Below are positions 1,762 through 57,290 of a stretch of 64,000 nucleotides of DNA, piece by piece. The number at the start of each line of letters is the position of its first letter. Within the stretch, counting starts at the first letter, position 1. The DNA is from Astrocystis sublimbata (taxonomy: Eukaryota > Ascomycota > Sordariomycetes > Xylariales > Xylariaceae), in the NCBI GenBank assembly GCA_022453515.1, contig JAJNNY010000003.1, positions 620,001 to 684,000 of the forward strand, read 5' to 3'. Position numbers and translations under genes: made by a program. Under the pieces are notes generated by a model. The model searched no databases and had not been told where the DNA came from. It saw nothing but the letters and a program-made list of their open reading frames with translations.

Positions 1762-2354
1762 TCAACAAGAAGCTGTGTAATGTAGTCTTTCCATTACACA
1801 GTTGATGATGTCTTCCGCTCGGTCGGATTGCGCCTGCTTGAACGGGGCACTCGGCACAGCGACCGTTTTCTCTCGAGATTTTAGTCCGTGTGTGATCTGC
1901 AAGCTAGACTTGGGCATGTCCAAGGCCTACGACGCAGTAAGGTTGCATTAACAGAAGACTCAGGCGTAGTAGATACGACAGACGAGGGATGAAAAGGAGC
2001 GGCCTACTTGACTCAAGACTACAACCGCTGGAGTCAGCAATTGCCTTATACAGTAAAAGAGTTGCTCACGAAACGGGGGCTTGCAGGTGTCTCGGGAGCA
2101 TAGATACCTGTCAGGGTAATTCATGCCTCTGAGACTTGCCAGAATGACTCCATGGAGTGCATACCTTCCACCACGGCCTTATTTGCCTTGCCGTCCTGTG
2201 GTGGCGCAGTTACGCACAGCTCGATGACTTCGTCGGTGATGGCGACTACGCCTTCGCGCGCCTTGGCAGCGCCTGGCCGCACATGGCAACGTAGCTGTAT
2301 GATCTCGGCTGAAGATTTGGATTTGATAAGGCTGATAGCTGCCCGACTTGACAT
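1762..2354 (-). CDS. DUF167 / YggU (UPF0235) family protein
   Basis: Small conserved protein of unknown biochemical role, found from bacteria to eukaryotes. Reading the minus strand, exon 1 is 2354-2165, exon 2 is only 11 nt (2018-2008) and exon 3 is 1926-1762. The spliced product is 121 residues. The family core is clear: IQLRCHVRPGA, then ITDEVIELCVTAPPQDGKAN, a KAVVEVLSQAL segment and ITHGLKSREKTV. The last two segments only come into frame when the 11-nt exon is used. Intron 1 (2164-2019) is copy A of the repeated intron family described separately. An in-frame ATG at 2432 would add 26 residues. I prefer 2354 because the extension is basic and low in conservation, but the choice is not certain. 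Confidence 0.85.
2019..2164 (-). repeat. Introner-like intron, copy A (DUF167 gene)
   Basis: A 146-nt intron that matches copies B, C and D along most of its length and shares their ends: a GTATGCA start, a central TGGCAAGTCTCAGAGGCA block, and a TGACTCCAGCGGTTGTAG end. TGGAGTCA near the 5' end (plus 2145-2152 is its complement) is exactly complementary to TGACTCCA near the 3' end (plus 2029-2036 is its complement). An internal CAG/GTATCT junction at 2108/2107 divides it into two intron-like halves of 57 and 89 nt. Confidence 0.82.
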
Positions 2355-2410
2355 TGCTGCGGGTGACCTGTCACAGTGTTTAGCGCTCCACCGGGAACAG
2401 CTGTTACGTT

Positions 2411-2422
2411 TGACACGTGTCA
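2411..2422. promoter_or_regulatory. 12-bp perfect palindrome with E-box core CACGTG
   Basis: TGACACGTGTCA is a perfect inverted repeat about 60 bp upstream of the preferred ATG of the DUF167 gene, and inside the alternative 5' extension. CACGTG is the usual core for bHLH factors in fungi. Its role here is inferred from sequence only. It is followed directly by an A/T-rich trinucleotide tract (2423-2447). Confidence 0.35.
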
Positions 2423-2432
2423 ATAATAACAA

Positions 2433-2945
2433 TAAAAATAATAACTTACTGACTTGAGAATTCTCGACATCTATACGTGTAGTCGTGGGATCTCTAAGTA
2501 CCTGCGTTTGTACGCATGATTAATGGCCGTCAGTAGTAACCTTGGAAGCCGAGATGGATCGTAACCACTGTTGCTTAGGGTACGAATGTAGGTATGATAC
2601 TAGTACCTATCTCGCCTATGTAGGAAGGAGGCATGGGTAGGCGCCTGATCTAGCGAGGTTAGATTACTGTAGGTAGTACTAAGTACAGTAGGTAGAAACA
2701 TGCAGGCGCTATGTACTCTGCAAAGATACCTAGGTAGGTAAGACCGGCGGATATAAGCTACTCGATGTAGCTTAGCTCAAATGCATATTATATGAGGCAT
2801 CATAACCTCGATTCTCACAGTGAATTGTTACAATTGCATTGCTCGAATATGCCATGTTCAAAGATCCAAGAGCTGACACCTGAAAAGCCCAACGCCAATT
2901 CCATCCGACTGTTTCGACATTATGCCTATATAATCTAGTGGGTGT
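2433..2945. other. Divergent promoter region between DUF167 and HAD genes
   Basis: Shared upstream region of two divergent genes. It contains a cluster of TAGGTA/TACCTA words (about 2590-2740), including ATACCTAGGTAGGTA near 2729, and a good TATA-like box TATATAAT at 2927-2934. No coding sequence is seen. Confidence 0.5.
2927..2934 (+). promoter_or_regulatory. TATA-like box of the HAD gene
   Basis: TATATAAT lies 12 bp before the first in-frame ATG (2946) and 78 bp before the ATG at 3012. The spacing makes 2946 likely to fall in or before the transcription start, and supports 3012 as the translation start. Confidence 0.4.
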
Positions 2946-3011
2946 ATGTACCGCATCGTCCGCTGTCTCTCGAGCACGAGCCGGGAGACACGCCAGCTCT
3001 TGCGCGGCACC

Positions 3012-4869
3012 ATGGGGTCGCGATACAACACTGGGAGCGGCTATGGAACCAGAGCCGGAGTCGGGACGGGAACTGGAACTGGAACTGGGATGGGTAATGG
3101 AAATGGAAATGGAAATGGAAATGGAAATGGAAATGGAAACGGAGGCGGGAAGTCCATCAATGGCGCTTCCAATGGCCTAGCCAGTGGCCCGACTATCACA
3201 GCGTTGGGCAGATGGTCCATACTGAACACGCAACTTCCAGGTGTGTGCTGCTGCTATTATTCCTCCCTCGTCGCCGCGTTTGCTAACGGCGGCCTGCTGC
3301 GCAGCTCCCGACCAGATCAGCACCATCCACGTATACGACTTCGACAATACCCTCTTCCAAACGCCGCTGCCGAACCCGAGACTGTGGAACAATGTGACGC
3401 TGGGCCGCCTGGGAAGCCCCGACATATTCGTGAACGGCGGCTGGTGGCACGATTCGCGCATCCTGGCTGCGACGGGGGACGGCGTCGAGCGCGAGGAGCC
3501 CCGAGCCTGGAACGGCTGGTGGAACGACAAGATCGTCGAGCTGGTGCAGATGAGCATGGCGCAGAAGGATGCCCTCTGCGTGCTCCTGACCGGCCGCGGC
3601 GAGCGCGGCTTCTCCGACCTCATCAAGCGCATTGTCACAAGCAAGGGGCTGCAATTCGACCTGATAGGCCTGAAGCCAGAGGTCGGCCCCGACAGCGAGC
3701 GGTTCCGCAACACGATGCACTTCAAGCAATCCTTCCTTGGGGCCGTTATCGAGACATACAAGCACGCGCAGGAGATGTGCATATACGAGGACCGCCCCAA
3801 GCATGTCGACGCCTTCACGGAGTTCTTGAGCACGTACAATGACCGCCGACAGGACGCCCGCCATCAGCCCGCCCGCGGGCCCATCACCGGCAAGGTCATC
3901 CACGTTGCAGACATCTCCACCCACTTGGACCCCGTCGTCGAGGTAGCCGAAGTACAGCATCTGATTAACAACCACAACCTGTCGGTCGGCGCCCGATCAA
4001 AACGAGGTCGCAGCGAACGCTTGGTCATACGGAAAAACGTCTTCTTCACCAGCTACATGATCAAACCGGACGACACCAAGCGGCTGATCGCGCTAGTCGC
4101 TCCGCACATACCCGACAACCAGGTCAAGTACCAGGCCAACGCTATCATCATCACTCCCAGGCCGTGTCCTCGGAACATCTTGGACAAGATTGGCGGCATG
4201 CACGCCAAAATGCAATGGGGCGTTTCGGGCATAGGGTCGTGGGACAACAATCTCTGGGCTGTGTCTCTGCAGCCCGTGCCCCAGTCCGCGCCGTATCACA
4301 CAGACTCGAGCGTCCCGTCCGTGGTCATCGCCACGCGTCGGACAGCGCGACCCTCGGAAGTGAACAGGATCCACCATTGGCAGCCCATCCCGCCCGAAAA
4401 GGTCTTTGCGTTCGAGACCGTTGTCGGCGAAAAGGTCATGCTGCGGATCGAGCCCGAAGACAGCCCGGACGACGAGAGCGATGGTATCGCATTGCAGAAA
4501 GCTAAACGCAAGTTCAATAGAGTTGACGGCGACGACAAGCAACAGCGTTCCACGAGTGGTGGTTACGGTCACCATACCAACAACAATAATAACGGCAACA
4601 GTAACTCACGTGGCTACCACACCTCAGGTTATCAGGGTCGTGGTGGGAATCGAGGCGGCTTCAGGGGGGCCTCGAACCGCGGATTTCGCGGTGGCCCCAG
4701 AGGCCGAGGGGGCGGACGTGGTGGCCGAGGTGGCTACCGGTCGTTGGATGATCTGGGAATGCGAGAACCCCAGGGTGGCGTTTCTTACGATGACAACTTT
4801 CCGTCATTTGGTGGCGCGCCCTCCCAGCCGTCCCAGCACCATCCCCAACAGCCGGGCGGCCAATGGTAG
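3012..4869 (+). CDS. HAD-superfamily 'Swiss Army Knife' RNA repair-like protein with C-terminal RGG region
   Basis: Predicted phosphohydrolase-fold protein of the HAD_SAK type, proposed to act in RNA repair; function in fungi is not established. There are two exons, 3012-3240 and 3305-4869, giving 597 residues. After a Gly/Asn-rich N-terminus (GN repeats from a GGAAAT hexamer run) comes ITALGRWSILNTQ, then the HAD motif I HVYDFDNTLF with two aspartates, followed by LLTGRGERGF and a MCIYEDRPKH motif. The C-terminal third is rich in Asn, then in RGG/RG repeats typical of RNA-binding tails. ATG 3012 has an excellent context (CACCATGG) and lies downstream of a TATA-like box. An in-frame ATG at 2946 would add 22 residues. 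The domain is clearly recognised; the biological role is inferred. Confidence 0.85.
3091..3142 (+). repeat. GGAAAT hexanucleotide repeat in coding sequence
   Basis: About seven tandem GGAAAT units encode alternating Gly-Asn. The unit length is a multiple of three, so length changes would keep the frame. It is preceded by a degenerate GGAACT run encoding Gly-Thr. Confidence 0.8.
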
Positions 4870-5890
4870 GCTCCGAATCATTAACGGAAAACAACTATCT
4901 CCCAAGTTGAACACGCGACGTTGAAATAGGTCCTAGCGAAGTACCTCGGTAGGTGAAAGCCATCTCATCCTCGAACAATTCACGTCAGTAGTGGCGAAGT
5001 CTAGCCATCTACTACTTCTGCGTATTATAGCATTGCCGCGAGAAGAAGAGGGCAAATGCAAATGGCACTTACTCTAATTGTATATCTATATCTGCGGGTG
5101 GACGGGTAGGTTGTCACTTCTAATGCGGTGTCTGGAGCCGGATTTCAAACATACAAATGATATTTCTGCTGCGGCCTGTGTTGTCGCACAGTTCTGCGAG
5201 TTAATCAACAAGCAGCAATGGGCAGTATTAAATCGCTGTTCGAAGACGGCGATATACCTATGTGCCTGTACATGTACGGCTTCAATGGCTCCGTCCTTCT
5301 GCGGAAACACGCAGATTGGCAGAGCATGCGCATGCCTCATGACATACTCATGTACACATGTAGAATATGCCAGCTACCTACCTGATGAGCGTTCACAGAA
5401 CATCGTTGGTTCTGATGTAGCTTTCCATAATAGGAAGTTAATCGTAGCCTTGGTGTCAAGGTTCTTAGCCAATGGGTTGTAGTATCATAGACGTCGCATC
5501 ACGCACATGCCTTCTTACAAGAATATAAACGTGGACACACATCTCAAGGCCCAGCCGGCTTGCATGCAATTAGAAATAAGTGATTTCCCATATGCTTCCG
5601 ATTCAAATGCTACTTCGTGAAATCCCAAGTACAATTGTATATACAGCCAGCGCCACCAGTCAGCAGCACGTATGCTTCGCCCAATATCATGTCGCTCCGC
5701 AACGCCCGAGGGAACAACCATCTAATGTAGGTATGTTCGATGCCAAGCAAGAGTCCGCAACATGCATTTTCACCGTGGCCTTCGAATGGACCGTGCCGTT
5801 CAACCACGGGATCGACACGCATATGTGACAAGCAGAATCAAACCTAAAAACAGCCCGTCAAGGCACCCTTCCTGCCTAACACGGCCAGCC
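4870..5890. other. Convergent intergenic region, no supported gene
   Basis: Short open frames exist on both strands, but none has family similarity, a plausible start context or support on splicing. This 1 kb contains the 3' UTRs of the HAD gene and of PRI1. Confidence 0.45.
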
Positions 5891-12395: not shown

Positions 12396-14576
12396 ATGTC
12401 TAGCCAGCAGGATCTACAGGCCACTTGTGGCTCGGGGATGGCATTGCCCCAACAGGTAAATCACTCGATACTCACAATCTATGCAGCACAATTTTCTAAC
12501 ATGCTATTACACAGAAGCTCCCCTTCGACATTTTTTACAAGGTCGCCAGAGACTTCCTGGTAGAAGCGAAAGATGTCTTGGCTCTCGCTATGACTAGCCA
12601 CGAACACTGGGAATACATTCATCGTGAGATCTACAGAGCTGATATCCTTCTAGCTAAGAGCATGGTTGAACAAGGTGTGTACCGTCGTTCCTGGGCAGGA
12701 CCAGGAACCGCTGAGGCTTGGGCAGACCTATACCTGAAGTACGATCCCCTTGATGCGAACCGAGTCTGTTATAGCTTGGATGGTTTGCCACGTCGGCCTT
12801 TCCGGGGTCTCGTACCAGACAACTATGCTCCCCAAAATCCACGACACCCAACCATCCTGCATCGTGTCACGCTCGACGGAAATCTTCCAGCACTGAATAT
12901 GTGTCTCACGGTATCAAGAGACGTGTGGCCTGACTACGTTAGCCTGCTCAGTGTCGATTATCTGCACGGAGCACTTCACTTAGCAACGGCTTTTGGAAAG
13001 GCAGAGATCCTACGCGCGATCCTCGATCACGACAGTACGACGGTCAATGAGACATTACCTGATTGCCTATCAACACTGTCGCTTGTCTTCGAGTATGAAC
13101 AGCAACTTCATCTCCGCGGGTACAGCCGTATGCCTATACCAATTCAATATCTTTGCGATAACAAGCCGCGAAATGCTCTTTGCTTCGCTTTGGCGCGAAA
13201 ACAACAAGAATGCGCCAAGATTCTGGCAGAGTACCATGATGAGTGAGTAAACGCCCTGCGTGAGGTCGTCTTCACCTGGGGCGAAAATGCTGACACAATC
13301 AGAACGCATCACGATTGGGCCCGTACGCTTCACCCGTTGGACAGTATGTAATCTCTCGAGTCATCCACTCTCCCTTCTGGCAACATTCGGAGTCACAATT
13401 TACCCCAATGGGCACCTGTACTCCTGGGTCACCTGTACACTTCAATTTCATGAGAGTCACTATTTACCTTGGTTCGCAATGTCTGACTTTTGTGCTTGTA
13501 GTTGCTGCGTTTTCTGGCATGATCAATATTGCCGAAACCCTTATTCAAAAGGGAGCCGATGTGCGAGGCCGTACTTTGCGGTACGCCCTACGTCGTGAAG
13601 GCAACGATGCTATGGTCGACTTTTTACTTGAAAAGGGCGGCATTGCAACCCGAGCCCACCTCGACGAAGCTATCAGGTGGAGAGCTCCTGGTAATACCAA
13701 AAAGCTTCTGGAAAGAGGAGTCGGATTCGACTTCCTCCCACCCTACACTGACCATAAGGAAGAATGCAACTTTGGCGAATGCCAGTTTCAACAGTGGTAC
13801 GTATTGGTTTCACTGGCTTGCCACATAGTCCATATCAATCCCGTCAAGAGGACAATATCTTGTCGTTCACTACTATTATAGAACCCGCGAGGACTCGCTA
13901 ACGCCGAACATATAGTCTCTCCCATGACGTTTTCATCGACTGCACCAAGCTGATGCTCACAATGCCTTCAAACTTGGACGAAAGAAGCTTGAACATTTGC
14001 CTTCTACACGCGCTACGCGATATAGACGGAAATGAGCAGACTCTGAAGTACTTCATCGAAAATGGTATTGGGCTTGACGTTGAGAGAGATGCTGATGGGC
14101 AAATCTTGACGACCCCAATCCATCAAGCCGCTTATATGGAATAGTATGTAGCTTCCCCTCCATGTTTTTCTTTTTTTTTTCTTTTTGCAATCCCAGCCAT
14201 CCTATATTCAGGACATTGCATTGCAGGATGAAATTGTTAATTAACTCTCATGTGATTTAGCGTGGCAGGCTGTCCAATGGACATCCTTACTCTATTGCTG
14301 GAAAAACGACCAGAAGACATCAACAGATTGGACTGCAAGGGCAGCACTGCAGCATCCGTGGCCTTTTGCCACAAGAATTTCGACAGGCAGAAAGCGGCAT
14401 TGTTCTTTCAGTATGGTGCAGAGCCATCAGCTTGTTCAACGCCGCAGGAACGAGTCATTCTGGAGGAAATCAGGCGTGGAACATCTGCCGAAGACATCAA
14501 CCAGATTCTGGAGCTTCAATTCGATGGCATCTGGCCTGATAGTGATTATAGTGCGAGGTATTGGTATGTCGTCTAA
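12396..14576 (+). CDS. Ankyrin-repeat protein with F-box-like N-terminus
   Basis: Predicted protein-interaction protein of unknown target. Six exons (12396-12455, 12515-13242, 13303-13343, 13502-13796, 13916-14143, 14261-14576) splice to 535 residues. The N-terminus reads MSSQQDLQATCGSGMALPQQ, then KLPFDIFYKVARDFL, which resembles the start of a fungal F-box-like helix pair. Ankyrin-type units follow: GALHLATAFGKAEILRAIL, LHPLDIAAFSGMINIAETLI QKGADV, a NICLLHALRD unit with LKYFIENG, and MDILTLLLEKRPEDIN. The 41-nt exon 3 is needed to restore LHPLDIAAFSG across the splice. Intron 3 (13344-13501) is a diverged member of the repeated intron family. Such proteins are numerous and fast-evolving in filamentous fungi. 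Confidence 0.82.
13344..13501 (+). repeat. Diverged introner-like intron, copy E (ankyrin gene)
   Basis: A 158-nt intron. It keeps the order of family blocks: GAGTCATCC near the start, CTGGCAACATTCGGAGTCA in the centre followed by AATTTACCC, GTACTCCTGGGTCACCTG, and a GCAATGTCTGACTTT end before TTGTAG. Individual blocks differ at several positions, so this is an older copy or a parallel resemblance. The internal AG/GT junction is not kept. Confidence 0.5.
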
Positions 14577-14776
14577 CTCGCCAGTGGGCGGGGCCTCTCA
14601 AGACGTTATGCCCATCATGAATCCGAGTGCTCTAGGACGAGGGAATGATAATTATTCGAGTCTCTGGCGAGGGAAGGGAGCTCGATTGCTACGCAAATGG
14701 GGAAGAAGTTGCTAATGTACACCAGAAGAGCTCATGAGCGAATAGGCGCGACCTTGTGGAGCATATGGCCGTTCCA

Positions 14777-17700
14777 TTATTCGAGATTCGCGTGTAGTCT
14801 TAGGTCTCTTGAGCTTGCACCAATGTATGCAGTCTTCGCATAACTTGTGACCTTCCAGTCCTGTGCCTCGGTGTCCCAATTGCTTACATCACGATATGTC
14901 AAGTTAAAGCTGACTGTTTTCATCTTCCCGGCCTGAAGCTCAACCTCGTCAAAGCCACGAAGCACCATTTCTGTGAGAGGAAGAGTTAGAGTCTACTATA
15001 CATGGGATAACGTCGACTTATGTATTATGAGGAGTCTTGGGAGCATGCATGATCATGTGGCATATGCAACGGCAGAGATTTTGCCGTGTTGCGGAATTGA
15101 AGTTTGAAAAGTACTAACTAGGCTCCGTTGGGCCACCTAGGGAGATATACTATAAAAGAGTCAGCGGCTGTCCTGTTTCGTTGTCGGTAAGAATTCAGCC
15201 ATATCGGTACGTACGAGTTGTGGAATATCAGTTCCAGTCACTAGAACACACGAATTAGTTGATGCCTAGCCCACATTGATCTCGAGTTTCAAGAGACTTC
15301 CTCAAGCGCACAAATATTTTATACAACCCCAAGGATGCGCAGGAATTGTGTGAGCTGGAATTTTTGTTACCTTTGCCCGAGTTCGTGATGCTCACGGTTA
15401 TGATGTAAATGACTTTGTACAGTTGCGGGTTTCCTCCAGGTGCGCCACCAGCTGCCAGAATTGGCTGCGCGGATCTGTTGTGTGCTGCATATGGAAAATC
15501 CGGGGACCCGTTGTCATAAGGAAAGTCTGTGCTGTTGATCCAGGGATATATCATACCGGGCACCTTTTCGAACCCATCGGGCTCAAGTGCACTCACGGGG
15601 TCAAAGTCGATGCCCCCAAAAGTCGGCCCCGCGACCGTGAGCCCACTTGATGGCTCGTAGGGCTCTACATCTTGCTTTTCTATCGTGAGGTTCGCGTACG
15701 AGAAATTTGTGTAGCTAAGACCGAAACCAAATTCGAAGCTCGGTTCGATCCCTTCGCGATCAAAGTAACGGTAGTCGATGAAAGAGCCTTCGACGAAGTC
15801 CTGTTGTGGTTCTGGCTTGCTTGAGTTCACAAGAGTAGCGATACCCCAGTCCTTGGCTTCCTTGCCCCACGTAAAAGGGGTCCTATTCATCACACTAGAG
15901 TCAACAACTTCCGCTTAGAGTAAAGAATTGGCTCCTGATTCGGGAGCCTACGCCTACATCTATTGCAAGAGCAGGATGTGCCCGCTAGGGCAATTCGTGC
16001 CTCTGAGACATGCCAATAGAGGGAACAAAAGACCTCGGCGAACTCACTTGCCTGATGGGTTGACTTTGCCATATAAGACATCGGTTAATGAGTTACCAGA
16101 CTCCTGGCCCGGGAGGCCCGCCCAGAGAATCGCCGTGATGTTGGGATGTGCCTTGATGTGATCGATGAGCACAGGCCCCACGCTATGTATCACTACAATC
16201 GTGTTTCGGTTGATCGACGCGACGGCGTCAATGAGTTCATCACCGCCGTTCCAGAGTGTTAGATTCTTGCGGTCGCCGAAGTTTCCGTCAAGGGACTGAT
16301 AGCCTTCTCCGGAGTTTGCATTTGCGAACACGATGGCAATAGACGAATCGCTCGCGGCAGCCTGAGCGGTGCTGAGGTCCCAGTTACTCTGGACGTTTGT
16401 GAAAATGGTGCCATCCGTCCTAGCTTGCTTTTCGAGCGCACTTGCGGGAGAAACAAGATACGGAAACTCGGCTGTCGCTGAGCCCCAACCCATTGCCAAT
16501 GTTGCCTCATCGCATATTCTGTCGACACAGGCATTGGGACCTCTGGGGTTGTCTTGTGCATCTTCGCCAATAACTGCAATGCTGGCTGGTTTACTCAGTG
16601 GCAGGACATTGCCCGAGTTCTTCAAAAGCACAACCGATTTCGCACCAATCTCTCTAATAAGGCCGGCATGGTCTCCTTGAACGTTGACGTGTTGATTGAC
16701 TGTCGTATTACCTGTCTTAGAGTGCCAGTATTGAGGCCCCACGGTCTCGTTCGTCCACGAGGAGTAGTTGATATCAACCTGTTTCGTGTCTCGTCCTACC
16801 TTGTAAAATGCGGCCATTATTCTGACAGCCATGTCATCCATTCGAAATTGAGACACTGTGAGAGCCAGAACTGCTTCTGTGAGCCCTCCGCCCCAGTGCG
16901 AGCCGTACGTAGTATTACGGACTCCGTCGCCGGGCATCGTCATGTCGAGCCCAGCGAGTGCACTCAACGCACCGCTATGTTGTGCACCCCAATCCGAAAC
17001 AACTGTTTTCGATAGTGAGCAAACCCCCTTTTCAAGCCTTCGTTTCGAATGAAAGATCGCCCCCCGGACTCTGCACAGAGCGCATTGACCTTGATATAAC
17101 AACAAGTATGATAGATAAAAGAAAACGCATCTCATACCGAAACCTTGGAAGCCAAGCTCGTCTTTCAGCAGACGGTTTAGAACATACGAGTTTTCGCAAG
17201 CATACGTGTTGTTGATCTTGTTGTAGGAGCACATGACGCTTCCGACACCAGCGCGTATGGCATCCGCGAATGGCCTGTAATTTAAGTTCAATTAATCAGC
17301 AGTCGAAACTAGCGAACACTTTCACTCTTATCATGATACGCTATGTTCTCGGAGTGCGTGGTATAGAAGATCTTTTGACTGACCATAGATAGAGTTCGTG
17401 CATAGTTTTATCGTCAATATTGCTACTGATGCCACCTCGAAAGTGCTCTTGTTCGTTCAAGATGAAGTGCTTCACGCTAGCAATCACACCTGCGCTCTGT
17501 GTTCCTTCGACCGTCTGTGCGACAGCCACGCCTGCTAGGTATGGATCGGGCCCAAAAGCTTCAAAGTTGCGACCGCCAGCCGGATCACGCCCTAAGGGCC
17601 CAACAACTGGCCCGAGGAGGACATCTTACACGCGTCAAAGTCAGCTTGGGACTAAAATGCCGAGACCGAAGTTCCCTCCTCCATCGATCATGAGGACATG

Positions 17701-18328: not shown

Positions 18329-18814
18329 CTTGAGGATCAAATGATGATAAGTCAGAAATGTAACATCACAAGAGGCCGAATTTTTCAACCGCAATCGAAA
18401 GACTGTAGAGATATTTACATCTCCATGTTCAAGACTTCGATATGACACGAAATGGCAAGGTATTCCCACAATGACGCAGGACCGCTAAGAAATGAGTATG
18501 CCTTGGTAGTGCAGTTCATTTCCGGCAGAATGTAGGAGTCCAATAATAGCCATTACTGCCGGCAAGGAAACTCTGCATATATCCGATAGCATTCTCATTC
18601 GTTAGAAATGAAAAGAAAAACAGTAGTAGACCCAAAGCATTAGGCACAAAGCTCGCTGTATTGGGATGGACGGGAGGTATAGGCAAGCAAACAATGTTGT
18701 TGCCATCAACTCAGGATACACCACTACCTACTTTGTTGCTAGGTTATGGTGCCTCCTCCAACATCACATATCATCGCAAACTATACTGTGAATGGCCAGG
18801 ATACCGCCTCAACA
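18329..18814. other. Intergenic: GH3 promoter and SRO7 3' end
   Basis: Contains the upstream region of the beta-glucosidase and the 3' UTR of the minus-strand SRO7-like gene. No coding signal and no clear carbon-regulation motif array were recognised by eye. Confidence 0.4.
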
Positions 18815-30828: not shown

Positions 30829-32824
30829 ATGTCGCGTTCTGCTATTGAACCCTCTTTTGCTTTGATGGAGGATGTCTTTGTCGGCCACATACTACCCTAC
30901 TGTGCTGTGTCGAGCAAACCTGATTCTTTGCCTGCCCTGTCTGCATACCTAGAGCGGCTGTCTGCCAACAATCGTTTCGCGCCGACGGGAGTCAACCAGC
31001 TCCATGGGAGATGTAGCATACGTTCTCATTCCTCAGCGATCGTTGATTCCCCCATCGTGCGAAAACCCCGAGGTGCCTCGGTTGAGTCTGTCGTTACTGT
31101 GCTGTTTTCTAGATTATTTCTCATTGTTGCCACCCTCCTCCCTTTCAGACGTCGAGGCTCCTACGAAAAAAAAAGATATCACGACGATATGAGCGACGGC
31201 AGAGTCTGGCCGAATGACACAGTATGCGAACAATACTATGGGTCCGGCAACTCCTTCCTCGAGCCACAGACATCCTCTGTTTTCGAGCCTGGCGACTCAA
31301 CAATTGTGCAATGGTTCGCGGGCATCGTGTCCTTGTCCAGTCCTCCTGCGGCATGTATGCAACCACTGGAGTCTTTGATCACCCCTTTTCGCAACCAACC
31401 GCTTACTCACCCTAGCAGCTAAGGCGACCCAAGTCTTCAACCTCGCCATCACGTCTTATCGGAATGAGAGTGAAAGTTCCTATATCGTGAGTAAGTGGCA
31501 ATTATCCCATCAAGAGGCCCATATTCTCTCAAACTACAGTGTCTTCGTAGTCGCAAGGCTATAAGAAGCTACCGAAAATGCCCTAGGCATTCTCTTACTA
31601 CATCTTTTAACATCCCGCAGGAAAAGCAAGCGTTCATTTCTCAGGAAATACGACCAAGGACGACTTATCCTGGACGTACATTACTGAAGGCCCTTGTCCC
31701 TCCGCGACCGAGATCTCATACCTATGGCATATACCGAATGACTTCATGGCCGTTTCCGAGACGGACTTCGACTATGTCCTCATCGTGGAGACCGAAACCT
31801 CAGACGGAGATTTGCGACGCTCATCAAGCATGCCATTCCGAATCCTTGTGCATTCGTCCGACCCCGCTATATCGTCAACCTCATCTGCCACGGACGAGGC
31901 ATCGATGACGCCCGAGAGTAACCCAATAGGGGGTTTTCCACCGGGATATGTCAACCCCCATCGCTCGCGGAACCACGGCTTGAGCACCGGCGCAAAAGCC
32001 GGAATCGCAGTCGGCAGTGTCCTCGGTGGGCTGGCGCTGATATTGCTCTTCGTCTGGGCGTTTTACAGACGGCGACGGAAGTTGGAGTCAGGGGAGTTGG
32101 GAGAAGAGACACCAGGACCGCCGACGACTGTTAATGCCTATTCTAATACTAATGCTACGACTAATACTAATACTGAGCAACCCGGTGCCACAGATCAGAA
32201 AGCCGAGTTAGATAGCCGGCAGATACCGACCGAAGTAAGCACTCCCTGGAGTTATTCATTCCACCTACTGGCAAGTCTCAGAGGCATAAATCACCCTAGC
32301 AGGTATCTGTGCTCTTGAGACACCTGCAACCCCCCGTTTCATAAGCAATTGTTTTGGCATCAAAGGCGATATCGTACTGACTCCAGCGGTTGCAGTCAGG
32401 CGGGGCGCCGTTGTATGAGCTCGAGGCCTTCGACACACCCCAAAGAAATGCCGCCACCGTGTCGCAGGCAAGTGAGAACACGACGCCACAAGAGAAAGAT
32501 AGCACCCCGTCGCAGGAAGAGACGGCGAAGACCGTAGTACAGGAAGGAATAAACGTGAAGTCCCCTGATACGCCAGTCACCACCTCATTACAAGGGGAGA
32601 TGGGCACCACACCCCAGGAGACAGCGAAGGTCCAGCCTCACGAGGAGGCCAACGTAGCGTCAGAGAAGGAAGGTCATAATCTACCAGAGGGAGAGGCCAA
32701 TAAGGAGTTGCAAGATGAAGACAGCGTCACGTTACAGGGGGCTGCCCATACCGATGCGGCTGTGAAGACACTGCCTGGAGAGAGCCATCCTCTTGATGTC
32801 ACGCCCCGTCCCCTTTTTACCTAA
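30829..32824 (+). CDS. Single-pass plasma-membrane-type protein with Glu/Gln-rich tail (start uncertain)
   Basis: Unassigned, but of a common fungal design: extracellular domain, one membrane helix, basic stop-transfer and long cytosolic tail. Exons are up to 31354, 31419-31490, 31621-32234 and 32396-32824. The outer domain includes SFLEPQTSSVFEPGDSTIVQ, a KATQVFNLAITSYRNESESS segment, GNTTKDDLSWTYITEGPCPS and TEISYLWHIPNDFM. The helix GIAVGSVLGGLALILLFVWA (about residues 327-346) is followed by FYRRRRK. The tail repeats TPQE/PSQEE-like units. The ATG at 30829 gives 546 residues, with a hydrophobic stretch VVTVLFSRLFLIVATLLP near residue 90. An ATG at 31189 would drop it and leave no signal peptide, so the 5' end is unresolved. 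Intron 3 is copy C of the repeated intron family. Confidence 0.65.
31355..31418 (+). repeat. Short intron resembling the first half of the introner-like family
   Basis: This 64-nt intron starts GTATGCAACCACTGGAGTC, close to copy D (GTATGCAACAATTGGTGTC), and ends TCACCCTAGCAG, identical to the last bases of the first half of copy C, which lies in the same gene. It may be a stand-alone half-unit. The middle does not align. Confidence 0.35.
32235..32395 (+). repeat. Introner-like intron, copy C (membrane protein gene)
   Basis: A 161-nt intron, closest to copy A. Shared blocks are ACTCCCTGGAGTTATTC, CTGGCAAGTCTCAGAGGCAT, the CACCCTAGCAG/GTATCTG junction, TTGAGACACCTGCA, CCCCCGTTTCATAAGCAA and TGACTCCAGCGGTTGCAG. 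CTGGAGT (32246-32252) is complementary to ACTCCAG (32380-32386). The internal junction at 32302/32303 gives halves of 68 and 93 nt. It interrupts the coding sequence in phase 0 between TEIPTE-like tail residues (QIPTE) and SGGAPLYELEAF. Confidence 0.85.
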
Positions 32825-50763: not shown

Positions 50764-51362
50764 GGGCTCCATCAAGCTAGCTTTATATTTTCTTTTTAGG
50801 TATTATTCCGGAATACAGAAATATAGAAATACATCGAGCCTAAAATCAGCCCATAGCCCTGGACTCGGACTCCGGCCTCGGCCTCTGAGTCTACAGATCA
50901 ACTGAGGTTACCTCCCCCCTGCTCACCTGAGAATAGCAGGGGGTTGACATGTACTCCCAGCCAAAAGAGTACTCAACGCTACAACAGCGTCACACCTATG
51001 CCACACATTCGGATCATAGGTACTACGTATTGAGATCAAGAAAAAAGTTGCGAAAGGGCCGGCTGGGGCGAGGACCGGACCGTGAGGGACGGCGGCCGAG
51101 TTCCTAGAGGGCCAACCTTCCTGTCTCTGGTTCTGTAATTATAAACACGTCAAGTACCTAGGTACCTCTTTACTCTCTGGGCTGCTGTCTGCTCGGAAAA
51201 AGTGGGGTATTGCCAGGTAAGCAGGGGCTGGGAGGGGGGGGGGTCCAACACTAGAGTGCCCGCTCCTCCCATCGCCAGAGTGGAATAACGCTGGAATAAG
51301 TACCCATGTGAATGGGCTCCTTCCATCCCAGAATCGTATAACACTGGAATAAACAGACCACT
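50764..51362. other. Intergenic region with the 5' flank of tRNA-Ser copy 1
   Basis: Contains the UGGT 3' UTR and, from about 51261, the duplicated flank shared with the second tRNA copy. Inside that flank are two head-to-tail units of about 54 bp (starting near 51262 and 51316), each with CCATC..CAGA and a TAACRCTGGAATAA box. A GTACCTAGGTACC run is at 51154-51166. Confidence 0.5.
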
Positions 51363-51443
51363 GGCACTTTGGCGGAGTGGTTATCGCGCGGGCCTGCTAA
51401 GCCCGTCTCCTCGGAGGCCAGGGTTCGAATCCCTGAGGTGTCG
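51261..51443 (+). repeat. Duplicated tRNA-Ser cassette, copy 1 (flank plus tRNA)
   Basis: About 100 bp of 5' flank plus the tRNA are repeated at 54798-54981 in the same orientation. The flanks align through CCATCGCCAGAGTGG, CTGGAATAAGTA, CTTCCATC and AACRCT. Differences are mostly transitions. Confidence 0.7.
51363..51443 (+). tRNA. tRNA-Ser (anticodon GCT), copy 1
   Basis: 81 nt, class II tRNA with a long variable arm. The acceptor stem GGCACTT pairs with AGGTGTC (two G-T pairs), the discriminator is G, and the anticodon loop CTGCTAA carries GCT, reading AGC/AGT serine codons. The variable-arm stem is CTCC/GGAG, and the T arm CAGGG-TTCGAAT-CCCTG has the B-box GGTTCGAATCC. The A-box region is TGGCGGAGTGG. 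No intron. Confidence 0.95.
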
Positions 51444-51903
51444 TCCATTGTTTTTTGGATGACGCATAGCAGCGCCCTCTCTGCCCGACTCGGGAGTCTG
51501 CCCTTTGGGTTCGTGCTACCCCGCGGCCCGCATCGTCGGGGATACTTACACGTACCTACCTAAGCGAGCTAAGGTACCTATAAGCCGCTAAGGTGCGGGG
51601 CAGTAGCTACTGCAAGTACGTAATGTACATACCTCCCTCATGCATGTACCAACCTTCCCACCGAGCCACTCACCAGATATTGAAACTTCAGCATCTTGGT
51701 ACGCTTTCACAACCTTGAAGCTCTTGTTTCGTTTGGGTTTCCACCGTACATACAACCCGGCGAGCGTTTCCATCCCTGCGTTCCTTCGCTTCCTTTCTGC
51801 GCAACAATTACGGCCAATCTGTGATCGACCCCAACAACACGCACCTTTAATCGTTTTTTTTGTTACACGAAGAGGCGTCACTTCGACTGCTTTGCTGCCC
51901 AGG
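51444..51903. other. Upstream region of SDS23
   Basis: Promoter and leader of SDS23, with CGTACCTACCTAAGC and GGTACCTATAAG near 51551-51582. No separate gene is seen. Confidence 0.5.
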
Positions 51904-53551
51904 ATGGAACAGCATCCTACACGCCACTCCGGCGGCGATCAGGCCCCGCGAGAGCCTGGCAACGGCAGCGGCAGCGAACCCATCCCCATTCCGTCACCGA
52001 ACCCGCCTCAACGGACGCCCTCCTCGTCCAGCCTTCACAAGTCCAGCCTCAGCTCGGCTCATGGCCACAGCCATCACGCTCATCGAAACAGCTTTGCCGA
52101 GAACCTGCGGGCCCTGCCTTCGTCGCCACGCTCCCAACGACACCCCTCATTCACCCAAGCCGCCCTCCAGGACCTCATCAACAACCCGCCCGCCTCGAGA
52201 CACAACCCTCGTTTCGCCGGCCGCGACTGGCGCGATGTCGCCATTGGCGAGCTCGTGTCCGAAGAGGACGTCCGCTGGGTGGACATGGATACCAGTGTGG
52301 AGGACGCCTCCATGGTACGTGCGATGCTGCTTGTCGCTTGCCGCCCGGTCCTTGCCCTGGTCTAACGCGGTCGCAGGCCCTCGTCAAGAACACGGCGAGC
52401 AACGTCATCGTGATCCGCGAAAATGCGACCAGCACCAAGCCCATCTCCACATTCGACTACAGTGATCTGAATGCCTACATCCTTGTCGTTGTTGGCCTGG
52501 GCCAGCCCCCGGAAGAGCTGCTGGAGTTGTACGATGACATTGCCAAACGCGCACAGGCGCGGGTTAGCATCCCACTGCGTGACATCCAGCCAATCTGCCG
52601 CAAGGAGACGTTGGTGACGCTGCAGGGCGACGAGGACCTGGCCCGCGCCGTGGAGCTATTTGGCAGTGGCATCCACCGCATACTAGTTACCAACTTCCAG
52701 GCAGAGGTCGTGGGCATCTTAAGCCAGATCAAGCTCATGGAGTTTTTTTGGAACGAGGGCGTCAACTTCCGTGTCATCGACGAGCTTTACCCAAAACTCA
52801 TGAAGGAACTCGGTGTCGGTTCCCAGCAAAGCATCGCGGTCAAGTATGCTGCCTATTCCCCCTCGCTTCGATATCCGCAGACGGAAGTAGGACTGACATA
52901 TACCACAGCGCCGACAGCCCTCTAGTAGATGCACTCACACTCATGAGCCAGGAGGGCCTGACAAGCGTGGCCGTCGTCGACAACGGCTTGAATGTGGTGG
53001 GCAACATCTCGACTGCAGATGTCAAGCTTCTCATCAGTGCTGCTAGCCTCCCACTGTTCAAGGACACATGCATGCATTTTGTCTCGGTCATCCTCACCGA
53101 GCGGGGTGTGGAGAAGGGCAAAGATTCGTTTCCTGTATTCTACGTGAACCCCTATTCTACGCTCTCCCACACTGTTGCTAAGCTCGTGGCGACTCACTCC
53201 CATCGCATGTGGGTGGTGGAGTCGGCTTCGCCGTCTCCCTCAGCCCCTGGCACCCCTCATCTTCAACCAACGGTGCTCGTGTCCAACTCGGCCCCGTCCT
53301 CGCAGCCCGGTGGTCCAACAACGCACCATGCTTCCGCGTCCGTTCCGGCCTCGGCACTTTCGGGTTCCCATCTCTCTGGGCGTCTGACCGGTGTTGTGAC
53401 TTTGACGGACATTCTGAACTTGTTTGCGAGGACCACCGGCCTCAACCCTTCGGACCCAAACGAGCAACGAGCTAGAAGGCGACGAAGCTCCAGTAGCTCA
53501 ATCCGACCGTCGATCGATTCGTCGCGAGCAAGCATCGACAACCGTCGCTAG
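51904..53551 (+). CDS. SDS23: CBS-domain protein SDS23 (Moc1 family)
   Basis: Regulator linked in yeasts to glucose/AMPK-type signalling and to control of PP2A and cell-cycle progression. Three exons (51904-52314, 52377-52843, 52909-53551) splice to 506 residues. The N-terminal 100 residues are Ser/Pro/His-rich and poorly conserved. Two pairs of CBS motifs follow: [60 protein letters not shown] and [20 protein letters not shown] with [20 protein letters not shown]. The last CBS half is split by a Ser/Pro insert before [20 protein letters not shown]. The C-terminus is [17 protein letters not shown], a likely phosphorylation target. It lies between the two duplicated tRNA-Ser genes. Confidence 0.94.
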
Positions 53552-54797
53552 CACGTCATTTCCGCCCGGGTGCTGAAGTTCTACTAAGTTATAACTTGAA
53601 CGTGATGAGGGGAAGGACGGGGCGATATGGGTTTGGTTTTCTTAAGCGGTGCATTCAGGGTGGCGTCTTGTTGGTTGCCGGACATTATATTTGTTGACAT
53701 CGGGAGTTTAAAGGAGTAGGGGGCCAGAATCGGAGGAGATGCTGACTTTAGGTCTCGCTGGTTGGTTTAAGTGTCCACGATGCTATGTAAAAAGTATTCA
53801 CGGATTCGGAGCAAAGTATCCGAGTCATCAGTTACTTCTTAAATGAATCACTTTTTGGTCATTTTTTGGTGTCGTTCTGAATCAGACTCTTCAAGTTGCC
53901 TGAAGCTGAGCAAACAACTATCTCGGTATCCAAGCCTCCGAGGCCAGTCTACATTACATATTTTAGCGTAGCGAGAGCTACATGGTTTCATTGTAAAGAT
54001 GGTCGGGGCAGCCGTTTCAAGGCTATTTGGGTCCGGCGCGTTGCTCCTTACCACCTCTCTCCCGATTCTCTTCTCAGCTCCAGAGTCGCTTACGGGTTTA
54101 GTCAATATTTCAAGTCCATATATCGAACATTGCTTTGACTGTTTTTTTTGTTTTTGCCTTCGTGTGTAGCAGGCAAATGCGTCAGCGGTACAATAAGGTT
54201 ACCTTGCTTATGTCCGATCCCTGACACATGATTTTCCTAGTAGCTTCCAACGTGGGGGTGATTGCAACATGCATCATTACGCAGAAACCTAGGCAACAAT
54301 TAGTAGTTGTCTAATGGTCTTGACTGGCAGAAAAACCCTACCGTAGGAACCGGGATACATCTGCGATACTCTTCGGCCAACTTTTGCAGTCTTCTTCGTT
54401 TTGGGGGCCAAAGTCGCCATCGGTTGGGGGATGTTGATCAATATACTGCTTGAGCTGCCATCATGCATCTTCTAATTTCAAAGGCTCGACGTTGCCTTCA
54501 TCCTCCCCCTGCAGTAGGGGTTTCATGGGAATAAGCTCCCCTTCAACTTTTAACGCTTTTATATAAGGCCATTAGTGCGTTGCCAGATCCAAAACTTATC
54601 AATTCTTTGATGGGCAATGTGGTTTCACCTTTTGATCTTTTCGGAAGCAAAATGGACCGGCCACTGACATCTTTAAGACCGGTATTTACTTTTTTCGGTG
54701 AAATAGATGGTCTGAATATCATCTGAGCTTGATGACCGATTAGATTTGCCCGAATTGAGCTCCATTGCATTATAAACACCGTTGTAGGCCAGGGAAG
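53552..54797. other. Intergenic region downstream of SDS23
   Basis: A/T-rich, with only spurious ORFs. The long antisense ORF at 54543-54986 crosses the second tRNA and is rejected. Nothing else is supported. Confidence 0.45.
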
Positions 54798-54981
54798 GTG
54801 CTCCATTGCTAGAATTGGATAATGCTGGAATAAGTATTCGTGTGAGGTGGCTGCTTCCATCGCAAGAGTCGTACAACGCTCAAACAACCAACGCACGATA
54901 GGCACTTTGGCGGAGTGGTTAACGCGCGGGCCTGCTAAGCCCGTCTCCTCGGAGGCTAGGGTTCGAATCCCTAAGGTGTCG
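54798..54981 (+). repeat. Duplicated tRNA-Ser cassette, copy 2 (flank plus tRNA)
   Basis: Partner of the cassette at 51261-51443. It keeps CTCCATTGCTAGAATTGG and AATGCTGGAATAAGTA, a CTTCCATCGCAAGAGTCG block and AACGCT before the tRNA. Compared with copy 1 it shows several C-to-T and G-to-A type changes in the flank. Confidence 0.7.
54901..54981 (+). tRNA. tRNA-Ser (anticodon GCT), copy 2
   Basis: 81 nt, identical to copy 1 except at three sites: TTAACGCG instead of TTATCGCG in the D loop, and a C-G to T-A change in the outermost T-stem pair (TAGGG/CCCTA). The stem change is compensated on both sides, so the gene is likely functional. Confidence 0.95.
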
Positions 54982-55668
54982 AGCATTTAACTTTTTTAGT
55001 TTCCTTAGTCAAAGGATAAGCAGACCATGTTTGTCTCCTTTAGGGACTCGGTGAATAGCATGAAGCCGGGCATCTTAAAGCTTGACAAATAGATCATGTA
55101 CCATGTCTGTTACGTAGGCACGTTATTTTCGCTGCTTGCCAATCTAAATAGCTTGGACCACCGGAATGCTCCCGGCACTCCGGCCGAGCCTCATTTAGCT
55201 CCGAGGCCGACACCGGTTTCGGCCGTAAACAGAACCAGAATAGGAATCTTCCATGAAGCCAACAATAGGTTTACATAGAAGCTGAGCTAGAATCATTAGA
55301 TTTGATCTGATCTGATCCACTCTAACGGCCCCCGGCTTCTCGCTCCATGACCCCGCGGCCTGAACGAGAATAGTTCCTGCCGTTTTGCGTAGGCATGTGC
55401 GTAAGCCGGAAATTTGGAACATTATCATCATGCTCTTCGATGTCCGGCGGCGCTGAATCTGCAATGTATAGACAATCACACTTTTTGTACGTGTATATAT
55501 ATATATATATATAGGTACACATACATACATAAATGTAGCCCTTGTTGCTGACTCCCAGTCCCTCGTGCAACTCTTTTGTTAAGATCTGATTGAGCTGCTG
55601 GGTCAATACTGGCTCCATTACTAATTATCTGGTGTCATGTAGTTCGAAAACTCAACAATAACGCCAAA
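54982..55668. other. Intergenic region upstream of the FAD oxidoreductase
   Basis: Contains a (TA)n microsatellite at 55493-55513 followed by CATACATACAT, and the likely promoter of the gene at 55669. Confidence 0.45.
55493..55513. repeat. (TA)n microsatellite
   Basis: About ten TA units in a row, 155 bp upstream of the FAD oxidoreductase ATG. Confidence 0.9.
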
Positions 55669-57290
55669 ATGTTCAAGAAAGCTTGGCTTCTGACTCGGGT
55701 GGTAGGAAGCATTGCAGGTTTTCTGGGAGCTCTCATGTCCCGCTTCTTATGGTTGCATGCAAGACGGACACGGTACCATCTCTTTCCTTCCTCCAGACAT
55801 GTCGAAGGAAATGAACGCAATATAGTCGTCCTCGGGGCGTCCGTGGCCGGGTATCATGCCGCCAGAACCAGTATGCAACAATTGGTGTCATTTCTCCCCC
55901 CCTTCTAGCAAGTCTCGGGGCACATAATCCCCTGAAGACTACTTCTGGCCTAGAACACCTGCCCATTCCCGACTCATGCACAAGTCCTTTACTCTAATTG
56001 GCAATTACTGACTCCAGCGGTGGAAGTCGCCGAGTCCATTCTCCCAGGTTCGCTGTTCCGCGTGGTCGTGGTTGAGCCACACGACCATTTCCACTTCACA
56101 TGGGTTTTGCCGCGGTTCTCCGTCGTAGGTGGCCACGAAAGTAAAGCTTTCATACCATACGGTCCTTATCTACGCAATCTACCCGCTGGTGTTTTGAAGT
56201 GGATACGAGGGCGTGCTGTTAGAATCACGAGGGATAGCGTGCATTTGAGCAGCGGCGTCGAGATCCCGTACGAGTTCTTGGTTGTTGCGACCGGGGCGGG
56301 CGCCACGGATGCTCTACCAAGTCGCGTAGGCGCGGATGACAAACTAGAGGGCATAGCCAAGCTGAGATGTATCCAAAGCAAGATCAAGGAGGCAGAGAAT
56401 TTAGTCGTCGTTGGCGGAGGCGCTGCTGGGGTCGAGCTAGCCTCGGACGCGAAGTCATACTACCCAGAGAAGACCGTCATCTTAGTGCATTCGAGAAGCA
56501 ATGTCATGCACAGGTTTGGCTCCGAGTTGCAGAAAGCTGCTATGAGTGGACTGGAAGATCTTGGGGTAAAGGTCATCACAAATGACAGGCTGGTCAGAGA
56601 GGACAAGGAAAGAGGCATTGCGATCTTGAAAAGTGGCAAGGAGGTCCACTGCAACTTTCTGGTAAGTATATTTACTTACCCCTTTCTACACACAAAAGAG
56701 AAAGAAGCAGCACATCAAAACTAAGTGATGAGGACTAGGTTGAATGTGCGGGCCAGAGACCCAACTCAGCTCCGATTGCCGAGCTGAGCCCCAACTCTAT
56801 CACAGGCTCAGGTCGCGTCCTCGTCAAATCCACAATGCAGATATGTGACGATTCGCTTCCTAATGTATACTTGTGCGGGGACGTCGCAGAGACGAACACG
56901 CCAAACCCCAACTCTCGAAGTGCGAGGGGTCAAGCTGAGATCGCGGCTGATAATGTAATTCTTGCCATGGACGGACATAGACCTACGAAGCAGTACGAGC
57001 CAAAATGGCTTGAAGGGTTTATCAAGCTCACACTTGGACTGGTAAGGTTTTCCCTCTTCTTTTCCTGCGACATTTAGTATATATATAACAAACAACTAAC
57101 CCTGGACTCAATTCTACTTATACAGGAAAAGTCTGTTGCCCACATCGGAGACTTTAGCGGCACAGAATTGTTGTTCCCGGCCAAGGAGAAGGACGTGCCG
57201 TTAAGCTCCCAAGGAGCTTGGAAACTGATGGGTGCCACGCCGTTTCAAGAAGATTCGAAGACTCTCCAGAGATTTCTTGCCGAGTCTTGA
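55669..57290 (+). CDS. AIF/AMID-like FAD-dependent NAD(P)H oxidoreductase, N-terminally anchored
   Basis: Pyridine nucleotide-disulfide oxidoreductase of the AIFM2/FSP1-AMID group; probably an NAD(P)H:quinone-type oxidoreductase, with the exact substrate unknown. Four exons (55669-55870, 56027-56661, 56739-57041, 57126-57290) give 434 residues. The first 30 residues contain a hydrophobic helix (VVGSIAGFLGALMSRFLWL) that could anchor it to a membrane. The FAD-binding start is NIVVLGASVAGYHAA, the NAD(P)H-binding motif is LVVVGGGAAGVELAS (near residue 194), and LPNVYLCGDVAET is the second FAD motif. Intron 1 is copy D of the repeated intron family. Its acceptor could be GGAAG (used here) or a CCAG nine bases earlier, which adds three residues in frame. 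AIF-like genes of this type are multi-copy in fungi. Confidence 0.9.
55871..56026 (+). repeat. Introner-like intron, copy D (FAD oxidoreductase gene)
   Basis: A 156-nt intron sharing GTATGCA, TTGGTGTCATTT, TAGCAAGTCTCGGGGCA, GAACACCTGC, TCCTTTACTCTAA, GGCAATTACTGACTCCAGCGG with the family. TGGTGTCA (55883-55890) is complementary to TGACTCCA (56009-56016) with one mismatch. The internal AG/GT junction is lost (CTGAAGACT). Confidence 0.78.

What the first reader, a model, noticed from the sequence alone, without database searches (positions are those of the whole stretch)
2019..56026. Family of near-identical introns inserted in unrelated genes (introner-like elements)
Four introns of 146-165 nt in four unrelated genes (DUF167 2019-2164, GH3 15883-16047, membrane protein 32235-32395, FAD oxidoreductase 55871-56026) align from donor to acceptor. 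All share a central CAAGTCTC/CATGTCTC block with a following AGAGGCA or GGGGCA, and a TGACTC[CT]AG end. Ordinary introns here are short and unrelated to each other. Gene orientation differs, but the intron sequence always follows the sense strand. That pattern means intron propagation, as reported for introner-like elements in some fungi and for proliferating introns in Hypoxylaceae.
Basis: partly seen in the sequence, partly recalled or inferred. Interest (0 to 1): 0.88.

Follow-up and report, generated by a model that had tools for sequence, protein, structure and literature searches.

The report
Copying introns spread through fungal genes
A fungus of the Xylaria family carries look-alike introns that seem to have copied themselves recently into many unrelated genes, usually just before a T, and this site rule offers a new handle on how such introns jump.

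Summary
The four introns are at the stated coordinates and align donor to acceptor (E 1e-28 to 2e-4). The window holds a fifth full copy (13344-13501) and a truncated sixth (31355-31418). The host is Astrocystis sublimbata (Xylariaceae), judged by one annotated protein and a contig length. Searches gave 157 places on 50 contigs, 44 resting on one hit. Two copies are identical over 157 nt with unrelated flanks. The spliced sense frame is open in 70 of 80 (antisense 48 of 80; random control 50%). Pfam domains cross the junction in 15 of 20 proteins. No target-site duplication was found.

New against the Xylariales papers read: an insertion rule. The base after the intron is T in 69 of 80 copies (39 of 41 young ones; script-predicted ordinary introns 6 of 29), then mostly G or C. 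Young copies fold into a hairpin with a near-terminal stem, as in sister stwintrons, but of other sequence.

Best reading: an introner-like element family, active until recently, probably copied through excised intron RNA. The mechanism is inferred, and splicing was not seen in RNA.

The parts
2019..2164 (-). Introner copy i1 (146 nt) in a DUF167 gene, phase 1, exon ..GGAAG^TCTTG..
   Evidence: DUF167 domain across the junction (only 5 residues past it)
13344..13501 (+).
15883..16047 (-). Introner copy i2 (165 nt) in a GH3 gene, phase 2; divergent, with altered donor/acceptor (GTGAGT..AATAG) and +1 base G
   Evidence: Glyco_hydro_3_C across the junction; homologues cover the whole spliced query in the listing (alignments not viewed; the host's own protein not among the 120 rows)
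31355..31418 (+). Relic: 5' part of a copy (matched to model position 40), apparently now a 64-nt intron GTATGCAACCACTGGAGTC..CCTAGCAG upstream of i3; spliced reading ..SSPPAA^SKATQVF.. is open (read by eye)
   Evidence: (E 2e-4), sequence
32235..32395 (+). Introner copy i3 (161 nt) in a membrane-protein gene, phase 0, +1 base T
55871..56026 (+). Introner copy i4 (156 nt) in a FAD/NAD(P)-binding oxidoreductase gene, phase 1, inserted inside an Ile codon that is invariant in 14 of 14 aligned proteins
   Evidence: annotated protein P0121 identical across the junction

Best explanation
This is a family of introner-like elements in Astrocystis sublimbata: canonical U2-type introns, about 157 nt long, that copy themselves into new gene positions. 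SHOWN by computation: many copies at unrelated sites; one length unit from GT to AG; no target-site duplication; mostly sense placement in open coding frames; an invariant branch-point A in the copies aligned; a strong target rule N^T[G/C] (weaker C-A upstream); a succession of closely related source copies; and a hairpin with a near-terminal stem in young copies that weakens in diverged ones. INFERRED: the excised intron RNA is debranched and folds so that the 16-bp near-terminal stem holds its first and last G together and shields it. This RNA is then joined into transcribed genes just 5' of a T, by reverse splicing or ligation into opened sense-strand DNA or a nascent transcript. It is copied to DNA by a reverse transcriptase or repair polymerase. 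Because the inserted unit carries both splice sites and the branch point, it is spliced out at once and tolerated. After insertion only branch point and splice sites are kept by selection, and the rest decays into an ordinary-looking intron.
For: 157 places, 44 of them on one hit (sources). Reversed-pattern controls were 0 for four of the five patterns, and 47 against 155 for the fifth. Identical 157-nt copies in a GNAT and a 6-phosphogluconate dehydrogenase gene, no flank similarity at E 1e-3. Sense frame open 70 of 80, antisense 48 of 80, random control 50% of 2000; sense score above antisense 68 of 80; retention would break the frame in 79 of 80. Pfam domain above its cut-off across the junction in 15 of 20 proteins. 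Annotated host protein identical across i4. No TSD: 47 of 59 share no base, shuffled mean 44.6. +1 T in 69 of 80 against 6 of 29 script-predicted ordinary introns, Fisher p 2.6e-10. The T was there before insertion at the two sites checked: the junction Met of 6PGD (16 of 16 rows) and Ile of the FAD protein (14 of 14) are invariant. Fold of a young copy -62.2 kcal/mol, z -7.0. Stability falls with divergence. Branch-point A in 79 of 79 rows. 33 RVT_1 matches in the genome, 29 with stops inside.
Against: No RNA-seq, no intermediate and no insertion event was seen; splicing is inferred from reading frames, Pfam and one annotated protein. The host's own annotated protein was seen for only one of three genes searched: for 6PGD the best row was 86% and for GH3 82% identical, so the annotation there is missing, differs, or falls outside the tool's length range. 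The inverted repeats and the sharp target motif would also suit a DNA element. The gene/sense bias could be partly selection, although selection would not remove intergenic copies. By my rough estimate up to about a fifth of copies could lie outside coding sequence: 10 of 80 are not open in sense (one of them, i1, has a Pfam match), and 2 of 80 are open only in antisense. The loss of structure in diverged copies is expected for any structured source copy, so it does not by itself show that structure is needed. Stem pairs do not covary beyond expectation. Many copies were found with patterns that include the branch region, which favours its apparent conservation. The T rule is not explained by the model.
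Confidence: 0.6

Rival explanations
1. A non-autonomous DNA transposon family without target-site duplication, whose inverted-repeat ends happen to carry GT and AG. A transposase elsewhere in the genome inserts it at N^T; mainly sense copies in genes survive as introns.
For: Near-terminal inverted repeats and a quasi-palindromic body: the reverse strand also matches the model. Sharp, partly palindromic target C-A^T-G. TIR without TSD exists among introners (Acanthoeca, PMC9860276, passage seen). Helitrons insert at A^T without TSD (recalled).
Against: At most about a fifth of the copies with sequence could lie outside sense coding frames, although selection would not act against intergenic ones. 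The unit ends exactly at both splice sites. No partner element was found, but none was searched for beyond a Helitron family search that is uninformative because its controls also failed. -1 A is only 34 of 69, so not the strict A^T of Helitrons.
Confidence: 0.25
2. Random double-strand breaks are patched with folded intron RNA (the model of Fekete et al. for sister stwintrons); the site is set by the break.
For: Seamless insertion, no TSD, hairpin with both terminal Gs together, as argued in PMC8469720 and PMC12403724 (discussions read).
Against: Sites are not random: +1 T in 69 of 80 copies and in 39 of 41 young ones.
Confidence: 0.1
3. Chance resemblance, or copies carried along by duplication of genes or chromosome segments.
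For: One pair (C11:39255 and C11:53720) is identical including the 14 nt of flank shown on each side, so segment duplication (or an assembly repeat) does occur.
Against: Host genes are of many unrelated kinds, and the flanks of the identical pair share nothing. Non-self matches reach E 1.6e-31 and 1.4e-77.
Confidence: 0.01

Closest known systems
[quoted passage not shown]
   Same: Same order of fungi; sequence-similar (stw)introns reported at new positions; seamless, no TSD; near-terminal inverted repeats within a few bases of both end Gs; symmetry strongest in young copies; functional on the coding strand only.
   Different: Here the copies fit single canonical introns of about 157 nt, with unrelated near-terminal sequence (GCAAC..CTGGAGTCA against GUAUAAAAAC) and the branch-point A inside the predicted stem. 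157 places in one genome, against at most 61 sister stwintrons per genome in the Table 1 rows I saw. Sharp N^T rule where they report no bias.
Introner-like elements of Dothideomycetes (van der Burgt 2012, recalled and as quoted in PMC8469720; Collemare, PMC4457414, passages)
   Same: Near-identical introns in unrelated genes, predicted stable structure, seamless insertion, two copies in one gene 145-626 bp apart, fast decay into ordinary introns.
   Different: Other class of fungi; shared sequence was not tested. They are said to prefer AG/GY sites (as quoted in PMC8469720), not N^T.
Introners surveyed by Gozashti et al. 2022 (PMC9860276, passages)
   Same: Fits the broad definition; ascomycete families are noted there as outliers lacking TSDs, with direct insertion in Alternaria.
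   Different: Clear inverted repeats, unlike what is said there of fungal introners. Whether this species or family is in their tables could not be seen (supplements not available).
Helitrons (recalled)
   Same: Insertion before a T, no TSD, hairpin near an end.
   Different: No TC..CTRR ends, -1 base not fixed as A, mostly sense-in-gene distribution.

Membership tests
Introner-like elements (fungal) | Similar introns in many unrelated genes, full length from donor to acceptor | tested here: met
   157 places, 108 with matches spanning over 100 nt; of 80 copies with sequence 26 are exactly 157 nt and 69 are 150-165 nt
Introner-like elements (fungal) | Functional spliceosomal introns | tested here: inconclusive
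   GT start 76 of 80, AG end 79 of 80, CTRAC in the last 24 nt in 72 of 80; frames and Pfam agree; no RNA data
Introner-like elements (fungal) | Recent multiplication | tested here: met
   identical pair with unrelated flanks; 17 of 81 copies, the pair included, at 90% or more identity to it
Introner-like elements (fungal) | Positions empty in related species | not testable with these tools
   no relatives' DNA held; only protein continuity was seen
Introner-like elements (fungal) | Seamless insertion without TSD | tested here: met
   (59 copies); protein continuity at two sites
Sister [D1,2] stwintrons of Xylariales | Internal intron between G1 and U2 of the external donor (..AGT.. centre) | tested here: not met
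   centre reads AG-GTA (consensus; AGGTA at the centre in 38 of 79), and copies fit single introns
Sister [D1,2] stwintrons of Xylariales | 5'-NTIRE-10 GUAUAAAAAC next to the donor | tested here: not met
   no exact match to GTATGTATAAAAAC in the genome (variants not searched); near-terminal stem present but of other sequence
Sister [D1,2] stwintrons of Xylariales | No bias at integration sites | tested here: not met
   +1 T 69 of 80
DNA-transposon introners (Huff/Gozashti type) | Target-site duplication, often giving a splice site | tested here: not met
   both splice sites lie in the unit
DNA-transposon introners (Huff/Gozashti type) | Terminal inverted repeats | tested here: met
   16-bp near-terminal stem in a young copy
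Helitrons | Insertion strictly between A and T, no TSD (recalled) | tested here: not met
   -1 A in 34 of the 69 copies with +1 T

The most novel reading that the evidence does not exclude
Xylariales hold a site-selective intron-inserting machinery. A folded, debranched intron (its two end Gs held together by a near-terminal stem of free sequence) is joined into sense coding DNA or RNA immediately 5' of a T, preferably C-A^T-G/C, with no duplication. This would be an unnamed mode of mobility, neither classical transposition nor random break repair. The same N^T rule would help explain why nested introns in this order almost always split a donor between G1 and U2 (G^T); the tandem pair C126:167225-167527, one copy set exactly at the edge of another before such a T, would be a relative of these events. 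Caution: donors usually read G^TA, and +2 A is rare here (5 of 69).
Probability: 0.3. Interest if true: 0.85.

Novelty: new variant of a known kind. Interest (0 to 1): 0.62.

Why it matters
How new introns arise is a long-standing open question, and fungal introners are outliers for which no mechanism is agreed. A family with identical young copies, some 157 places of graded age and a near-strict one-base target rule makes the question testable. Random break repair predicts no rule, and reverse splicing or a sequence-guided enzyme must explain the T. The youngest copies (about 95-100% identical) are natural donors for a reporter assay in a laboratory fungus.

Tried and rejected
Target-site duplication: tested with 59 copies against 500 shuffles, none found. 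An earlier run stopped with an error after printing the base counts.

Rows dropped. Of 64 model hits, C107:369749 was dropped because no GT lay near its start. Four more (a segment duplicate, two with degraded ends, and the first of the tandem pair) were left out of the 59. The 80 copies are 81 less the segment duplicate; three of the four come back there. Partial hits and the internally deleted C88:377182 were never counted as copies with sequence. Ends of the first 63 copies were set by a script that weighs coding score, the other 18 by the model.

T carried by the element rather than present in the target: rejected at two sites, where the junction codon (Met, Ile) is invariant in relatives. 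The other sites were not tested.

Phase preference as a separate feature: 37 of 70 phase 1, but the T motif alone predicts 43% (p 0.12), so it is not claimed.

Local hopping: in 13 of 14 pairs under 5 kb neither copy is the other's nearest relative; the exception is C168:918401, nearest to C168:916682. Repeated hits of one gene look independent.

Covariation of stem pairs: pairs match no better than when arms are swapped among copies.

Ordinary-intron control: the first thresholds gave only 3 introns; relaxed ones gave 29, 16 and 13, with +1 T in 6, 2 and 2. These are script predictions, not annotations.

Helitron_like_N: no match, but no control genome rang either, so nothing follows.

Star tree: only partly. 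Pair distances are 0.83 of the sum through the youngest copy, so there is a succession of source copies and at least one older subfamily with other ends.

Full report
OBSERVATION. The four segments reported were read and compared. They align from donor to acceptor with E-values from 1.3e-28 to about 2e-4 inside a 64 kb window. A model from seven copies also finds a fifth full copy at 13344-13501 and a truncated one starting at 31355. The latter is the 5' part of a copy that now seems to end at its own internal CCTAGCAG, giving a 64-nt intron with an open spliced frame (sequence; reading by eye). The four window copies are 60-84% identical to the youngest genome copies, so 'near-identical' applies to copies elsewhere in the genome, not to these four.

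HOST. The spliced translation of the i4 gene is 100% identical, over 90% of its length, to an annotated FAD/NAD(P)-binding protein of Astrocystis sublimbata. That protein's longest contig is 1,314,319 bases, the same length as the contig that holds the window. The taxon is Xylariaceae, Xylariales. The genome held is 42.6 Mb in 189 contigs. For two other host genes the listing held no identical protein (6PGD best 86%; GH3 best 82%); the tool's length range could explain GH3, not 6PGD.

COPY NUMBER. Queries over the genome gave: i3, 41 matches with 40 of 100 candidates scored; a young copy, 50 rows with 40 of 165 scored, nine of them short hairpin arms on the other strand; an older copy, 40 rows with 40 of 166 scored. 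The 3'-end pattern with up to 2 mismatches gave 72 places against 0 in the reversed-pattern control, and a shorter form with up to 3 mismatches 155 against 47 (only the first rows are listed, and I carried over just two that were new). The 5'-end pattern gave 32 against 0, the central pattern 90 against 0, and the branch-region pattern 80 against 0. Merged, this makes 157 distinct places on 50 contigs; 108 span over 100 nt, and 44 rest on a single search hit. Of 20 further places fetched to check, 19 hold element sequence, one of them internally deleted. The total is probably a lower bound, because searches were capped and diverged copies are missed. Copies are unevenly spread over 25 large contigs whose length I knew, nearly all known because they held a hit (117 copies, chi-square 73, p 7e-7; p 0.004 without contig C107, which has 13 in 0.54 Mb).

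RECENT ACTIVITY. Copies C102:606871 and C104:437349 are identical over 157 nt, lie in a GNAT and a 6-phosphogluconate dehydrogenase gene, and their flanks share nothing at E 1e-3. Seventeen of 81 copies, this pair included, are 90% or more identical to that sequence, and it is the nearest relative of 26 of the 78 other copies compared. Distances show a succession of source copies rather than a pure star (median ratio 0.83).

INTRONS IN GENES, MOSTLY SENSE. With ends refined, the 60 nt on either side join into an open frame in the sense direction in 70 of 80 copies, in antisense in 48 of 80, and in 50% of 2000 random GT..AG segments from the same loci. The coding score is higher in sense in 68 of 80; 2 of 80 are open only in antisense; retention would break the frame in 79 of 80. 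In 15 of 20 spliced translations a Pfam domain above its cut-off runs across the junction, including both junctions of an arginase with two copies; five do not show this. The annotated A. sublimbata protein agrees with my splice of i4 across the junction. [quoted passage not shown] mean column 0.82), as expected if splicing is what selection keeps. Two rows, a segment duplicate and the second member of the identical pair, were left out of that count, and many copies were found with patterns that include this region. Up to about a fifth of copies could lie outside coding sequence, given how often a non-coding stretch is open by chance (estimate by hand).

TARGET SITE. No direct repeats flank the copies (47 of 59 share no base; shuffled mean 44.6). 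But the sites are far from random: the first exon base downstream is T in 69 of 80 copies, in 68 of 73 with the standard 3' end, and in 39 of 41 copies at 85% identity or more to the youngest. The next base is G or C in 61 of these 69; upstream C and A are favoured (32 and 34 of 69). In 29 ordinary introns predicted by script in the same loci the first base is T in 6; Fisher p 2.6e-10. Of the 11 copies without T, nine are under 85% identity to the youngest, and several have altered 3' ends; one is the first of a tandem pair, followed by the next copy's G. At the two sites compared with relatives, the T belongs to a codon that is invariant in the aligned proteins (Met in 16 of 16 rows; Ile in 14 of 14). 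So there the T was present before the insertion. The tandem pair C126:167225-167527 is two copies back to back with no exon between, the second before such a T.

STRUCTURE. A young copy folds at -62.2 kcal/mol against -34.4 (sd 3.95) for shuffles. Nucleotides 4-10 pair with 150-156, and 12-20 with 140-148, leaving GUA and the last G free, above a central hairpin. The branch-point A lies inside the stem. Stability falls with divergence from the young copy (Spearman -0.57 for energy per nt, -0.58 for the near-terminal duplex). Pairs are kept no better than when arms are swapped among copies. So the structure is a property of the source copies and is not kept afterwards. This fits a role in copying, but the decay alone does not prove one.

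MECHANISM. The GT-to-AG unit, the sense and gene bias, the absence of duplications and the folded young RNA favour a route through excised intron RNA. The inverted repeats and the target rule leave a DNA element without duplications as the main rival (0.25). Random break repair is hard to square with the T rule. The genome has reverse transcriptase domains (33 RVT_1 matches, 29 with stops inside), so a source of reverse transcription exists in principle.

COMPARISON. The closest published case is the set of sister stwintrons and cropped sister introns in Hypoxylaceae and Xylariaceae. Of PMC8469720 I read the abstract, parts 1-2 of 3 of the results and the discussion; of PMC12403724 the abstract, parts 1-2 of 3 of the results, the discussion and passages; PMC9024468 was seen only in listings. 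They share seamless sites, near-terminal stems within a few bases of both ends, and symmetry in young copies. They differ in sequence (no exact match to the published element's 5' end here), in being stwintrons or their derivatives, and in the authors' statement that bordering exons show no bias. The word Astrocystis does not occur in PMC12403724. Searches of the held library for Astrocystis with intron, Astrocystis sublimbata with genome, and introner with Xylariales listed no paper on this family, as far as titles and abstract starts show. Papers outside that library and supplements were not seen. Dothideomycete introner-like elements (PMC4457414, passages; van der Burgt 2012 as quoted in PMC8469720) and the survey of Gozashti et al. 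(PMC9860276, passages) complete the frame.

VERDICT. The kind is known. What is new, as far as I could see, is the family itself, its host and a near-strict one-base target rule in an order where insertion was described as random.

Noticed in passing
window 31355-31418 (+): A 64-nt intron apparently made of the 5' part of an introner that now ends at the element's own internal CCTAGCAG: a snapshot of decay into an ordinary short intron.
   Followed up: partly
L021, genome C126:167225-167527 (-): Two copies back to back (GT..AGGT..AG) with no exon between, plus a third copy, 96% identical to the youngest, about 180 nt upstream.
   Followed up: partly
element centre, about position 60-75 of 157: The centre of the inverted-repeat body reads CTAACAG-GTATCT, like a branch point, acceptor and donor pushed together. 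In sister stwintrons the centre of symmetry is also an acceptor/donor overlap, so a stwintron ancestor is possible.
   Followed up: partly
genome contig C107 (0.54 Mb): 13 copies where about 3 are expected; cause unknown.
   Followed up: partly
genome C168:249654, C109:306210, C118:54096, C46:302778 and others: An older subfamily related to C13:47249, with other near-terminal sequences (GTATGTGTTC.. / ..GCGTGCTGAAG type). Some of its few copies with sequence lack +1 T; the ends of most could not be fetched.
   Followed up: partly
L086 and L087 (C11:53720 and C11:39255): Identical copies with the same near flanks in inverted orientation: a segment duplication or assembly repeat rather than two insertions.
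   Followed up: no
window 51362-51447 and 54901-54981 (+): Two tRNA-Ser (GCT) genes 3.5 kb apart.
   Followed up: no
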